Origin: Muribaculaceae bacterium
GTDB taxonomy: Bacteria; Bacteroidota; Bacteroidia; Bacteroidales; Muribaculaceae
NCBI GenBank assembly: GCA_017624155.1
Contig: JAGANS010000001.1
Coordinates: 1 to 62,546 of the forward strand
Direction: 5' to 3'
DNA: 62,546 bases
Part shown: piece by piece, positions 51,900 through 55,588 of the stretch
Layout of the letters: each line of letters starts with the position of its first letter
How positions within the stretch are numbered: position 1 is the first letter of the stretch
Made by a program: the position numbers and the translations under genes
Notes under the pieces: generated by a model
Told to the model about the DNA's origin: nothing
What the model saw: only the letters and a program-made list of their open reading frames with translations
Database searches by the model: none

Positions 51900-52447
51900 A
51901 TGAAGTTTGATAAGATTACTGAAAATGAAAGACTTTGGGCTGTCAGATATGACGAGGCCCTTGATAATGTTCTGGACGTCATGCTCGATAAGTGGAATGA
52001 CGTAACGTGGCTTCGTTCTTTTTTTAAGCAAAACTTAGATGATCTGACTTCATATTTTAAAATTACGGATGTTAATAAGGCAATATACGACACAATAGAA
52101 GATAGTGAACGTCTTCAGTGTCTGATACTGGATATACCCCGGATGCAAATTTGGATATGATATTCCGTCCGCTTGAGAATAGTCGTGCTTCTGAAATGCT
52201 TCTTGGGAAGGAAAAAGCACGCCTGCATAATGACGGCGGACATTCATCATGGCTACGTATATATGCCATAAGGATTGACCCCGGTATTTATGTAATCACT
52301 GGCGGGGCAATTAAACTGACCCGAACCATGCAGGAAAGGGAACATACTTTGATTGAATTGATTAGAATGGAAAAAGTTCGGAATTATCTGATAGATAATG
52401 GTATTTCGGATATGGACTCATTCAAGGATTATCTGCATGAATTATAA
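51900..52447 (+). pseudogene. RelE/HigB-like toxin gene of a TA locus, broken by a -1 frameshift
   Basis: Two overlapping frames join into one protein of about 182 residues. Frame 1 (ATG 51900) encodes RLWAVRYDEALDNVLDVMLD to LQCLILDI and then runs into a stop at 52160. The next frame continues TPDANLDMIFRPLENSRASE to the stop at 52447, with SWLRIYAIRIDPGIYVITGGAIKLT. The two meet at 52134-52141, where one base appears to be missing between ATA and CCG. I recognise the combined sequence as a Bacteroidales RelE/HigB-like toxin family; this recognition is from memory. The antitoxin starts 15 bases downstream. Either the toxin is dead, the base is a sequencing error, or frameshifting is used. 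Confidence 0.75.
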
Positions 52448-52462
52448 AGGAAAGGAGACAAA

Positions 52463-52780
52463 ATGAAGACTAAAGAAGAAATAATATCCGTGCTTCAGAA
52501 ACACAGTAGCGAAACTCCATCAAGATGGCGAGAAAAGGCTGAATGGAGAATTGCCAATAAGTCATGGCTCAGATATTCGCGGCGGATAGCGATGATGATG
52601 CTTGATAAAATGGATGAATTGGGGCTGACCCAAAAGTCTGTGGCAGAAAGAATGGGCTGTTCGCAGCAATATGTCTCACGTGTATTGAAAGGAACGGAAA
52701 ATCTGTCAATCGAAACGATAACTAAAATCGAGTCGGCATTGGGTATTGAAATTCTTGAGCCAGTGTTTTCATTTCGTTGA
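52463..52780 (+). CDS. XRE-type helix-turn-helix antitoxin
   Basis: A 105-residue protein with an XRE/Cro HTH at about 48-100: LGLTQKSVAERMGCSQQYVS, then KGTENLSIETITKIESALG. N-terminal helix EKAEWRIANKSWLRYSRRIA may contact the toxin. It is intact and in the same operon as the broken toxin gene; the upstream palindrome is its likely operator. Confidence 0.87.
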   Translation: MKTKEEIISVLQKHSSETPSRWREKAEWRIANKSWLRYSRRIAMMMLDKMDELGLTQKSVAERMGCSQQYVSRVLKGTENLSIETITKIESALGIEILEPVFSFR

Positions 52781-52886: not shown

Positions 52887-53354
52887 ATGATTAAGCAGAC
52901 GATTAAGAAACAATTCAACCTATTGCTGTCGGCAGTGCTTGCATTGCTCGGCTTCTCGGCATGTGATAGTATCACCGGTGGAGGAGATGAACCTGTTATG
53001 TACGGTACTCCGTATGGCGATTATGAAATTTCGGGCCTTGTGACCGACGAGGCTTCGACCCCGCTAAGCAACATGCGTGTCATTGTGTCCTCGGCTGACA
53101 GTAAGGGTGTCGGATATCGACATTACGATGCCGATACTGTCTATACTGATGAACAAGGGCATTACATGGTGAAAAATGAGGGCCATTCATTCTCGAATAG
53201 ACAGGTATATTGTGAAGATCCTGCCGGCGTTTATGAGGCTGACTCCACTGTTGTAAAGCTTGACTATAAGGGTGGAAGCGGCTGGTATCAGGGAGAAGCA
53301 GTAGCCACCGCTGACCTCAAACTGAAAAAGAAGGCTGAGCCTTCAGAAGAATGA
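52887..53354 (+). CDS. Radical SAM-associated lipoprotein
   Basis: A 155-residue predicted lipoprotein with lipobox GFSAC (Cys at about 26). The mature N-terminus carries MYGTPYGDYEISG, which I recognise as the hallmark of lipoproteins paired with a radical SAM enzyme in Bacteroidales (NCBIfam TIGR04134, from memory). An Ig-like fold follows (ISGLVTDEASTPLSNMRVIV), then NEGHSFSNRQVYCEDPAGVYE and a Lys-rich tail. It overlaps the radical SAM gene by four bases. The pairing suggests it is the enzyme's substrate or partner (inference). Confidence 0.8.
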   Translation: MIKQTIKKQFNLLLSAVLALLGFSACDSITGGGDEPVMYGTPYGDYEISGLVTDEASTPLSNMRVIVSSADSKGVGYRHYDADTVYTDEQGHYMVKNEGHSFSNRQVYCEDPAGVYEADSTVVKLDYKGGSGWYQGEAVATADLKLKKKAEPSEE

Positions 53355-54451
53355 ACCCCGAGAAACTATCGTTAAGGCGGCGCATTGCCCTCGAGGTGAT
53401 GCGCCGCAAGCACATCGACTTGGTCGAAAGACATCCCCTGCGGACTCTCTTCTGGGAATCGACACAGCGTTGCAATGTGCATTGCCTGCATTGCGGCAGC
53501 GACTGCAAGGCATCTACCGAGATTCCTGACATGCCGGCCGAGGATTTCCTGCGCGTCATCGACAGCATAACGCCTCATGTCGACCGGCACAAAGTGCTGG
53601 TAATTATATCGGGCGGTGAGCCCCTTGTGCGCTCTGACCTCGAGAAGGTGGGGCTGGAACTGTATAGACGCGAATATCCCTGGGGCATAGTCACCAACGG
53701 TCTGGCACTTACCGACGAGCGGTTGCAGCGTCTGCGCCGCGCCGGCATGCGCACCATTTCGGTGAGTCTCGACGGTCCTGAGGACGCCCACAACTGGCTG
53801 CGTGGCCACGAACGCAGCTATGAACGTGCTCTGGCTGCTATCCGCAACATCGCCCGATGCCCTGAGCTGGCTTGGGATGTGATAACATGTGTAAATAAAC
53901 GCAACATCGGACGACTGGAGGAATTTAAGGAGACCCTTATAGCCAACGGGGTGAAAGCGTGGCGCATTTTCACGATATTTCCTATGGGACGTGCCGCCGG
54001 TCAGCCGGATCTGAAACTCGACAGCGCCGAGTATCGCTCGCTGATGGAGTTTATCAAGGCCACACGTGCCGAGGGACGCATCAATGTGTCGTATTGCTGC
54101 GAGGGCTTCCTGGGTGAATACGAAGGCGAGGTGCGCGACTATTTTTACCACTGCAATGCTGGCATTACGACCGGTTCGGTACTTATCGACGGCTCGATAT
54201 CGGCCTGTGCCAGTGTCCGGGCCGACTATCATCAGGGCAATATCTATAAGGACGATTTCATGGACGTGTGGAACAACCGGTTCAGGGAATACCGCGACCG
54301 CTCGTGGATGCGCAAGGGCGAGTGTGCCGACTGCAAGATGTGGCGCTACTGCGAGGGCAACGGTATGCACTTGCGCGACGGCGAAGGGCGGCTGCTGCGC
54401 TGCAATCTGCACGAGCTGTCGGCTAAGAGCCGGTTCGACAATATCTGTTAA
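53351..54451 (+). CDS. Radical SAM/SPASM enzyme paired with the lipoprotein
   Basis: A 366-residue enzyme matching, from memory, the TIGR04133 radical SAM/SPASM family. The radical SAM cluster is CNVHCLHC (Cys 41, 45, 48) and the twitch/SPASM part has CNAG, CASVRAD, then GECADCKMWRYCEGN and LRCNLHEL, enough cysteines for two auxiliary clusters. SPASM enzymes modify peptides or proteins; the neighbour lipoprotein is the natural candidate. Its final eight codons lie inside a 34-base inverted repeat whose other copy starts in the stop codon of the convergent gene. Confidence 0.85.
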   Translation: MNPEKLSLRRRIALEVMRRKHIDLVERHPLRTLFWESTQRCNVHCLHCGSDCKASTEIPDMPAEDFLRVIDSITPHVDRHKVLVIISGGEPLVRSDLEKVGLELYRREYPWGIVTNGLALTDERLQRLRRAGMRTISVSLDGPEDAHNWLRGHERSYERALAAIRNIARCPELAWDVITCVNKRNIGRLEEFKETLIANGVKAWRIFTIFPMGRAAGQPDLKLDSAEYRSLMEFIKATRAEGRINVSYCCEGFLGEYEGEVRDYFYHCNAGITTGSVLIDGSISACASVRADYHQGNIYKDDFMDVWNNRFREYRDRSWMRKGECADCKMWRYCEGNGMHLRDGEGRLLRCNLHELSAKSRFDNIC

Positions 54452-54459
54452 TCTCCAGG
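54426..54459 (+). repeat. Left copy of a 34-base perfect inverted repeat
   Basis: Begins AGAGCCGGTTCG and ends AATCTCCAGG, and is the exact reverse complement of 54846-54879. It covers the radical SAM gene's last codons, its stop codon and eight bases beyond. Confidence 0.95.
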
Positions 54460-54521
54460 CGGTCACTCGCTGTGCAGATTTGTTCGCGAAGCGAGGGAGC
54501 AATGGGGTGCCATTGTGACCG
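54460..54521. ncRNA. Predicted three-way-junction structure inside the inverted repeat
   Basis: Three complementary pairs nest cleanly: CGGTCA (54460-54465) with TGACCG (54516-54521), CTCGCT (54466-54471) with AGCGAG (54490-54495), and CAATGG (54500-54505) with CCATTG (54510-54515). This could be an RNA element or the hairpin end of a small mobile repeat. No promoter is visible. Confidence 0.35.
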
Positions 54522-54752
54522 AAGCAAGCGGACAAAGATGCATGACGAGTGGCCGTGTGGCGTAGTAACGTAGTCCGAGTAGATGTCTGCCGGTACTTTG
54601 CCCTCTTCTGGAACGGCGCAAGGATATGTTTTATCAGCCGATATTGGCGTTTGTTGAAGTTAATATTCATGATGCCTGCTATTTACGTAATCAAGCTATA
54701 ACAATCAAGAAAGACATTGTCCGTAGCCTCTGTTTTGAAATTACTACGCCTT

Positions 54753-54844
54753 CGCATGGCTTGGGCGCTTTTCGGCCTGCTCATCAGTCGCGTACATCAA
54801 GTACGCTCCTTCTTCGCAGTCCAAAAATCCCTCCATGCCATGCG
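54753..54844. repeat. Long imperfect hairpin at the right side of the spacer
   Basis: CGCATGGC (54753-54760) pairs with GCCATGCG (54837-54844); inside, partial pairing continues, and at the tip GCGTAC (54790-54795) pairs with GTACGC (54801-54806) around ATCAA. The segment 54522-54752 between the two structures shows no gene or promoter. Confidence 0.5.
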
Positions 54845-54845
54845 A

Positions 54846-54879
54846 CCTGGAGATTAACAGATATTGTCGAACCGGCTCT
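54846..54879 (-). repeat. Right copy of the 34-base perfect inverted repeat
   Basis: Exact reverse complement of 54426-54459. It begins inside the TAG stop codon of the AlkZ-related gene (54880-54878) and reads, on the minus strand, the radical SAM gene's last codons and stop. Confidence 0.95.
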
Positions 54880-55588
54880 AAAGATTGAGCAGACGGTGAA
54901 TCAGCCGGTCGTCGGTGTGGGGTAGGGCGGCCTTGATGCGGCTGTGAAAGCGCAGATACGATTCCTCGGCCGAACGCCCTTGCACATCGCATATATCATC
55001 GCCATACAATGCCTCGGGTGTAGTGTAGCGAGCCACGCCCCAGCCGTAGGTGTCGCCGTGGCGGTCGGTCTTATACTCGAAGTCGGCAATCACTACATAT
55101 CCGGCCATCTGCAGGCGCATGATATGTGTGTCGAAGCCCAGATCGCGTGCGCCCTTTGAGGCACGGCTTTCTATCATACGTTCGATCGGGCTAAGGCCTC
55201 GGCGTGTATTTCGTGGCCGGCTGAATCCAGACAGATCTTTGAGTTCGCGCGACAGCAGTGATTCGTGTTCGCGCAGTACATCAAGGATATGAGCCTCGAT
55301 GGGATTGGCGGTGAGGTCGTATTGGCTGCGGCGCAGGTTGATGAAGTCGGGCAGCAGGTCGATGGCAATGTATCCGGCTTTGCGGTTGAAAAATTTGCCG
55401 TAGGCTACCCGCCAGTTGCGCACCAGTGTGCCCTTCCATATCCAGGGCCCGTCGGCAAGATCCCACAGTATCGGTTCGGGTACGATCTCCTCGATTGAGA
55501 ATCCGGTGATTCTGTTGCGGAAATAAGGCAGCACGCCGATATGCAATACCAGTTCTTCAAGTGCCTGTGATGTCGTTATGGGATTCAT
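54878..55588 (-). CDS. AlkZ-related winged-helix protein
   Basis: A 236-residue cytoplasmic protein resembling AlkZ/YcaQ-related proteins of Bacteroidales (recognition from memory). Features: LPYFRNRITGFSIEEIVPE, AYGKFFNRKAGYIAIDLLPDF, a helix-turn-helix-like HESLLSRELKDLSGF and WGVARYTTPEALYG. True AlkZ unhooks DNA crosslinks via a QxQ motif, which I do not see here, so activity is uncertain. The -7 box ends four bases before the ATG. It is convergent with the radical SAM gene, with the inverted repeat between. Confidence 0.72.
   Translation of the reverse strand: MNPITTSQALEELVLHIGVLPYFRNRITGFSIEEIVPEPILWDLADGPWIWKGTLVRNWRVAYGKFFNRKAGYIAIDLLPDFINLRRSQYDLTANPIEAHILDVLREHESLLSRELKDLSGFSRPRNTRRGLSPIERMIESRASKGARDLGFDTHIMRLQMAGYVVIADFEYKTDRHGDTYGWGVARYTTPEALYGDDICDVQGRSAEESYLRFHSRIKAALPHTDDRLIHRLLNL

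What the first reader, a model, noticed from the sequence alone, without database searches (positions are those of the whole stretch)
54426..54879. 34-base perfect inverted repeat enclosing structured DNA between two convergent genes
54426-54459 and 54846-54879 are exact reverse complements, 386 bases apart. The left copy includes the radical SAM gene's last eight codons and stop; the right copy begins in the stop codon of the convergent AlkZ-related gene, so a piece of coding sequence is repeated in inverted orientation. Inside are a predicted three-way junction (54460-54521) and a long imperfect hairpin (54753-54844). Possible explanations: an invertible segment, a hairpin-ended mobile repeat such as a MITE of IS200/IS605 type, or a palindrome made by template switching. 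Inversion would leave the radical SAM protein unchanged and only swap the 3' region, unlike known promoter invertons.
Basis: partly seen in the sequence, partly recalled or inferred. Interest (0 to 1): 0.7.

Follow-up and report, generated by a model that had tools for sequence, protein, structure and literature searches.

The report
Miniature transposon with two RNA-like hairpins
The palindrome is a small, transposase-less copy of a jumping gene that landed on the end of a bacterial gene; its kind is common in this gut-bacterial family and carries, just inside each end, a hairpin that evolution has kept folded on one strand.

Summary
The inverted repeat is real: it marks the ends of a 452-bp non-autonomous transposon (MITE), 54427-54878, flanked by a TAA/TAA target duplication. 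This genome holds eight full copies. A relative has the parent, a 1,147-bp IS with an intact IS5-family transposase (NF033580); the window copy keeps that IS's two ends and about 13 transposase codons. TWA duplications and GAG termini fit the IS1031 group of IS5, not IS200/IS605. The 'repeated coding sequence' is the transposon end: insertion replaced the radical SAM tail ..SAKD* by ..SAKSRFDNIC*. The unusual part is a ~98-nt hairpin inside each end. In 30 and 32 copies, 19 of 26 and 27 of 36 base pairs show compensatory double changes around fixed internal loops; G-U outnumbers A-C 162:16, and the inward-read strand folds better in 62 of 62 ends (33 of 33 in other genera). One strand, probably RNA, seems selected. 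The module matches 133 of 247 genomes of the family; some related IS5 elements lack it, yet a miniature with such an IS's ends carries it. Best guess for its role: insulation or 3'-end protection against host transcription (about 0.4). Transposon identity is near certain; hairpin function is inferred.

The parts
54424..54426 (.). left target-site duplication TAA
   Evidence: equal duplications in 29 of 36 elements and 42 of 50
54427..54459 (+). left terminal inverted repeat (33 nt); also gives the last codons and stop of the radical SAM gene
54457..54555 (+). distal-end (D) hairpin, folded on the strand reading inward from the left end; conserved internal loop GAGGGAG/GACCGA
   Evidence: R1 match 75.2 bits; MFE -57.6, z -9.15; covariation
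54427..54569 (+). stretch homologous to the distal end of the full-length IS (L055 element positions 1007-1147)
   Evidence: 71.9% over 146 columns
54631..54878 (-). stretch homologous to the transposase-side end of the full-length IS (L055 element positions 1-249)
   Evidence: 65.9% over 252 columns
54631..54670 (-). remnant of the transposase start (MNINFNKRQYRLI against MNIRFNKRQRRLI in the intact IS)
54751..54848 (-). transposase-side (T) hairpin, folded on the strand reading inward from the right end
   Evidence: R2 match 97.1 bits; MFE -52.2, z -9.05; covariation
54846..54878 (-). right terminal inverted repeat
54879..54881 (.). right target-site duplication TAA
53351..54451 (+). radical SAM/SPASM gene (TIGR04133) whose C-terminus SRFDNIC* comes from the transposon; flanks joined give ..ELSAKD*
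   Evidence: (model match ends at residue 355 of 366)
54878..55588 (-). AlkZ-related gene (PF24741); stop codon unchanged by the insertion

Best explanation
The feature is a non-autonomous internal-deletion derivative (MITE) of an IS5-family, IS1031-group-like insertion sequence. It inserted at a TAA where two convergent genes overlapped, duplicated the TAA, and gave the radical SAM gene a new last seven residues and stop codon (shown by sequence comparison, without an orthologous empty site). It would have been moved in trans by an IS5-type transposase acting on the 33-nt ends (inferred). Just inside each end sits a ~98-nt imperfect hairpin on the strand that reads from the end inward; its stems covary and two internal loops stay fixed (shown). 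I infer that the hairpins work in RNA made when host transcription runs into the element from either side: they insulate the element from that transcript and may give the host mRNA a stable 3' end. In full-length copies this would also keep read-through off the transposase gene. That functional step is about 0.4 likely; a part in transposition itself is the main alternative.
For: Eight full copies in own genome, window included. Equal 3-bp TWA duplications in 29 of 36 distinct elements (one of the 36, L034, is a chance match inside hairpins) and in 42 of 50 (left flank required to be TWA). Full-length IS L055 with the same ends and an intact 250-aa ORF that passes the NF033580 cutoff (161.8 against 110 bits). 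The window copy aligns to L055 positions 1-249 and 1007-1147 and keeps the transposase start. Radical SAM: the TIGR04133 match ends at residue 355 of 366; the ends of 3 orthologues and of a fourth lack SRFDNIC. Hairpins: covariation scores 0.533 (T) and 0.527 (D), reached by 0 of 500 shuffles, slid controls at most 0.165. G-U against A-C cells 48:3 and 114:13; inward strand more stable in 30 of 30 and 32 of 32. In other genera: scores 0.564 and 0.607, 0 of 500 shuffles; G-U:A-C 117:17 (33 of 34 rows) and 85:6 (31 of 36 rows); inward more stable in 33 of 33. Literature: the IS1031 group prefers and duplicates TNA (PMC12016507, passages).
Against: No match to this transposase in the own genome (draft, 97 contigs, 87.8% complete). 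No orthologous empty site found. No expression data. No canonical intrinsic terminator on the inward strand at either hairpin. Elements are not concentrated between convergent genes (29 tandem, 12 divergent, 9 convergent of 50, crude ORF calls), so a special role at gene 3' ends is not shown. In settled copies of five families, 34 single changes keep a pair, 17 break one, 7 double changes keep and 2 break one: weak constraint. A 161-bp element with one hairpin has the ends of a hairpin-less IS beside it (L257), so guarding a transposase gene cannot be the whole story. For A5 and A6 the alignments were fitted to the models; on A5 two of the five measures are less extreme (14 and 8 of 500 shuffles reach them), and on A4 one (1 of 500).
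Confidence: 0.85

Rival explanations
1. The hairpins act in transposition itself: the transposase, or a host factor, recognises a folded single strand (RNA or the 5'-ending DNA strand) at the ends, so mobile copies keep them.
For: Both ends carry the same module in inverted orientation and MITEs without transposase keep it. Elements of 160-194 bp keep one hairpin. Settled copies drift, as expected if selection acts when copies move.
Against: Related IS5 elements with TWA duplications lack hairpins, one with nearly the same outer ends (L262); the hairpin-less kind in L257 has six long matches in G159, so it moves without them. Elements that have lost one hairpin (L061, L072, L073) still have equal duplications, though the loss may have come after insertion. 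DDE transposases of this family are not known to need RNA (recalled). I lowered this from 0.3.
Confidence: 0.25
2. The hairpins are passive leftovers: both ends descend from one palindromic sequence, and pairing is maintained by template-switch correction of quasi-palindromes, without function.
For: Imperfect palindromes can be corrected by template switching (recalled).
Against: Two internal loops stay unpaired at fixed places while stems around them change. Correction of DNA would not favour G-U over A-C by 162:16.
Confidence: 0.1
3. Invertible segment flipped by a site-specific recombinase.
For: 34-nt inverted repeats around 386 nt.
Against: Like repeats with TWA duplications at dozens of other sites in many genomes; an IS parent exists.
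Confidence: 0.01
4. IS200/IS605-type MITE.
For: Hairpins near the ends.
Against: Perfect terminal inverted repeats, 3-bp duplications and a DDE (DDE_Tnp_1, DUF4096) transposase in the parent. The two hairpins lie on opposite strands.
Confidence: 0.01
5. A structured RNA gene or riboswitch between two genes, not a mobile element.
For: Strong covariation.
Against: Dispersed at many sites with target duplications; no Rfam match reached its gathering score in 54000-55300.
Confidence: 0.02

Closest known systems
IS1031 group of the IS5 family (e.g. ISLrh, PMC12016507, passages read)
   Same: 3-bp TNA target duplication; short terminal inverted repeats beginning GA; IS5-family transposase
   Different: Here a ~98-nt covarying hairpin lies between each terminal repeat and the transposase gene; 1,147 bp in L055 against 857 bp; transposase in one frame in L055 instead of a frameshifted pair
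IS5-related MITEs of Porphyromonas gingivalis (BrickBuilt, MITE464; PMC4596501, passages read)
   Same: Terminal repeats like those of IS5-family elements (GAGAC..); predicted stem-loops; recalled to be in the same order
   Different: BrickBuilt contains 23-nt internal direct repeats and no transposase remnant was found in it; covariation is not mentioned in the passages read
QMITE1/QMITE2 of Coxiella burnetii (PMC5896051, passages read)
   Same: Structured MITE transcripts; insertions that overlap gene ends and can give a host protein new C-terminal residues
   Different: QMITE2 duplications of 7-9 bp (PMC10969869, figure legend in passages); another host
Structured 5' leader of a transposase mRNA, ISPpu9 (PMC8450116, search listing and abstract start only)
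   Same: RNA structure near an IS end that bears on transposase expression
   Different: Here the structure is at both ends, each folded on the inward strand, also in elements without a transposase
Bridge RNA of IS110 (PMC11208160, search listing and abstract start only)
   Same: Structured RNA from a non-coding IS end (recalled)
   Different: IS110 is another transposase class; no guide-target complementarity was looked for here

Membership tests
IS1031 group of IS5 | IS5-family DDE transposase in the full-length element | tested here: met
   L055 ORF: NF033580 161.8 bits (cutoff 110), PF01609 and PF13340 above cutoff; the window copy itself has only the start codons
IS1031 group of IS5 | 3-bp TNA target duplication | tested here: met
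   equal TAA or TTA on both sides in 29 of 36 and 42 of 50; rule from PMC12016507
IS1031 group of IS5 | Closest relative within ISfinder's IS1031 group | not testable with these tools
   ISfinder not held; the 12 listed of 2,083 plasmid records are annotated IS5 family transposase, 38-42% identical
MITE | Short, no working transposase, terminal repeats shared with a full-length IS | tested here: met
   452 bp; ends shared with L055
MITE | Several copies in the genome | tested here: met
   8 full copies in own genome; 28 sites matching an end pattern, 0 with the reversed pattern
IS200/IS605-type MITE | No terminal inverted repeats, no target duplication, HUH transposase (recalled) | tested here: not met
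Invertible DNA segment | Both orientations present in one population | not testable with these tools
   no reads available
Intrinsic terminator | G+C-rich hairpin followed by a T run on the inward strand | tested here: not met
   one weak hit, on the outward strand (54790-54806 +), with 0.8 expected in shuffles; none in L055

The most novel reading that the evidence does not exclude
IS5-type cut-and-paste elements and MITEs of gut Bacteroidales share a portable structured-RNA module, found with several different terminal repeats and with one or two copies per element, and kept by selection on the inward-read strand even where no transposase gene is present. It works with the transposase or with host RNA machinery (RNA-assisted mobilisation, or end protection that makes insertions harmless), which would be a new kind of end for a DDE insertion sequence.
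Probability: 0.25. Interest if true: 0.8.

Novelty: new variant of a known kind. Interest (0 to 1): 0.5.

Why it matters
MITEs from IS5 elements are ordinary. What is not ordinary is a subterminal hairpin at each end that covaries, keeps two fixed internal loops, and is folded on the inward-read strand. It is common across a gut-bacterial family and turns up singly, with other terminal repeats, in miniature elements there and in two further families. It gives a directly testable case of how simple insertion sequences may use RNA structure to handle host transcription or their own movement. It also explains recurrent odd protein tails (LEPVRQ, KSRFDNKC, LELV) that annotation may take for native C-termini.

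Tried and rejected
Rfam on 54000-55300: three sub-threshold matches, none at gathering score. tRNAs in the window: none. An orthologous empty site was sought through the radical SAM protein (28 of 49 genomes matched, only 4 besides the own at 50-62% identity; the AlkZ-related protein gave no match in those four neighbourhoods) and through the AlkZ-related gene's DNA (36 of 297 genomes, the own included, otherwise short partial matches, neighbourhoods not examined); none found. A preference for convergent genes was tested with crude gene calls and not supported. Wider spread: the D-hairpin model matched 6 of 295 genomes in the order and 1 of 395 in the phylum sample, the own genome, at E <= 1e-4; strict filters and only 10-16 scored candidates per genome make these lower bounds. 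Transposase relatives on phage records: 4, none covering 80% of the query. An autonomous partner for the single-hairpin elements of G446 was looked for and not found; G350 was not pursued. Literature searches for hairpin-ended IS5 elements or Muribaculaceae MITEs listed none that I recognised from titles and abstract starts; passages of four papers were read (PMC12016507, PMC10969869, PMC4596501, PMC5896051). Model E-values are rough (short calibration).

Full report
Observation. The 34-nt inverted repeat is exact and far beyond chance. Each arm includes one base of a TAA duplication, so the element proper is 54427-54878 with 33-nt ends starting GAGC.

It is a dispersed element. Seven further full copies lie in the same draft genome, 348-357 bp from GAGC to GCTC against 452 bp for the window copy, in two end subfamilies (GAGCCGG.. 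and GAGCTTG..); two shorter elements (306 and 269 bp, L072 and L073) are also there. In one search, 20 of 61 genomes had a match, all 20 among the 37 of the same genus and none among the 24 of other families. An exact pattern from the T hairpin hit nine stretches in genome contigs, all from one MAG labelled uncultured Muribaculaceae, so I take the family to be Muribaculaceae (inferred).

It transposes with a 3-bp duplication. Of 36 distinct repeat pairs found without a flank requirement, 29 have identical 3-mers on both sides, 15 TAA and 14 TTA; one of the 36 (L034) is a chance match inside hairpins. In a second set with left flank T[AT]A required, 42 of 50 agree; five more elements with short flanks were left out.

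The parent is an IS5-family IS. L055 (an unnamed relative, G026) has the same ends 1,147 bp apart around an intact 250-aa ORF that passes the NCBIfam IS5 model NF033580 (161.8 bits, cutoff 110) and Pfam DDE_Tnp_1 and DUF4096. Among 49 genomes of the genus, 20 have a match to this transposase, but only the query's own copy spans it without a stop; the own genome has no match (the assemblies are drafts, and repeats are easily lost from them). The window element aligns to L055 positions 1-249 and 1007-1147 and on its minus strand still starts MNINFNKRQYRLI.. against MNIRFNKRQRRLI... It is therefore an internal deletion. TNA duplications are stated for the IS1031 group in PMC12016507 (passages).

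What happened to the genes. Joining the flanks gives a radical SAM protein ending ..CNLHELSAKD* (360 aa) instead of ..SAKSRFDNIC* (366 aa), while the AlkZ-related stop is unchanged. The TIGR04133 match stops at residue 355 of 366, and four orthologues, 50-62% identical, end near the same place without that tail. Depending on frame and subfamily, the terminal repeat reads LEPVRQ*, KSRFDN[IK]C*, LELV* or KSLFKNKC*. In the crude gene calls seven further host ORFs among 50 elements run into an element end (L006, L018, L038, L046, L064, L067, L181); the caller missed the window's own case. C-terminal donation by a MITE is already described in Coxiella (PMC5896051, passages).

The hairpins. Just inside each end lies a ~98-nt hairpin. 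T end (transposase side), 30 copies: 26 pairs, 19 with compensatory double changes, 96.9% of cells paired, covariation score 0.533 against 0.201 shuffled and at most 0.165 slid. D end (distal), 32 copies: 36 pairs, 27 with double changes, 95.0% paired, 0.527 against 0.219 and at most 0.121. Dropped before alignment: both ends of L034, truncated ends (L073 T; L045 and L072 D), two unclassified ends (right ends of L061 and L072) and identical hairpins. Conserved internal loops (GAGGGAG/GACCGA, and one around GAGYGA/GCGC) stay put while stems change.

Strand. On the strand reading inward from each end, G-U cells are 48 and 114 against 3 and 13 A-C cells, and that strand folds more stably in 30 of 30 and 32 of 32. 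As an outside check I used all 22 loci of other genera among the 30 that one search returned. With the D model: 34 matches, score 0.564; without one reverse-strand duplicate, G-U:A-C 117:17 and inward more stable in 33 of 33. With the T model: 36 matches, score 0.607; without five reverse-strand duplicates, G-U:A-C 85:6. Those alignments were fitted to the models and mix both end types, and on the second two of the five measures are less extreme. A double-stranded or cruciform function would not prefer one strand, so a single strand is what selection seems to see. RNA is likelier, but a single DNA strand is not excluded.

Spread. The T model matches 133 of 247 genomes and 19 of 30 genera in the family (at most 16 candidates scored per genome). 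In the order sample the D model found three genomes beyond the family (G446, G350, G541). Five loci of the first two, read, are elements of about 180-194 bp with one hairpin and other terminal repeats (read by eye; G541 was not read). In the phylum sample only the own genome matched.

Comparison elements. Four other IS5 kinds in the family, with TWA duplications and 39-43% identical transposases (L221, L222/L262, L224, L257), have no hairpin match inside their ends; L224 has a 24-bit partial match outside them, at the contig end. L262 has nearly the same outer repeat (GAGCTTGTTTAAAAA..) as the GAGCTTG hairpin elements. Elements with hairpins have transposases or fragments about 49-77% identical to L055. 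L257 is telling: three elements in a row share TTA junctions, namely a 160-bp GAGCTTG element with one hairpin (785-944), the hairpin-less 868-bp IS (948-1815), and a 161-bp element with the ends of that IS and one hairpin (1819-1979). So the hairpin looks like a module that can sit behind different ends, not a need of every IS5 end.

Function. Because the fold is on the inward strand at both ends, its RNA would be in transcripts that enter from the host on either side. In L055 the T hairpin lies before the transposase start, with a weak promoter-like site between them that is no better than chance. No canonical terminator was found on the inward strand. I favour insulation against host transcription, with or without mRNA 3'-end protection (about 0.4), over a role in transposition (0.25). 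Settled copies drift, which does not settle the question.

Verdict.

Noticed in passing
L257:785-1979 (G159:C1): Three elements in a row sharing TTA junctions: a 160-bp one-hairpin GAGCTTG element, a hairpin-less 868-bp IS5 (ends GAGATTGTCTAAA), and a 161-bp one-hairpin element with that IS's ends.
   Followed up: partly
L262:1180-2075 (G093:C13): An intact hairpin-less IS5 relative, TAA on both sides, has nearly the same outer terminal repeat as the GAGCTTG hairpin MITEs.
   Followed up: partly
L214, L215, L216 (G446); L217, L218 (G350): Elements of about 180-194 bp in other families of the order carry a single hairpin of the same design with different terminal repeats.
   Followed up: partly
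window 52463-52780 (+) with small ORFs 51900-52447 before it: HTH_3 protein preceded by short overlapping ORFs; may be a toxin-antitoxin-like pair; not tested.
   Followed up: no
window 52887-53354 (+): Small lipoprotein-like ORF directly upstream of the TIGR04133 radical SAM gene (model name rSAM_w_lipo), as that family name implies.
   Followed up: no
just inside the hairpins, e.g. L055:1473-1481: A GGTAAYTTT box follows the hairpin at many ends of both types; function unknown.
   Followed up: no
L105:3176-3259 (-): A further hairpin match (43.9 and 42.4 bits) near the full-length IS of G026, possibly another element.
   Followed up: no
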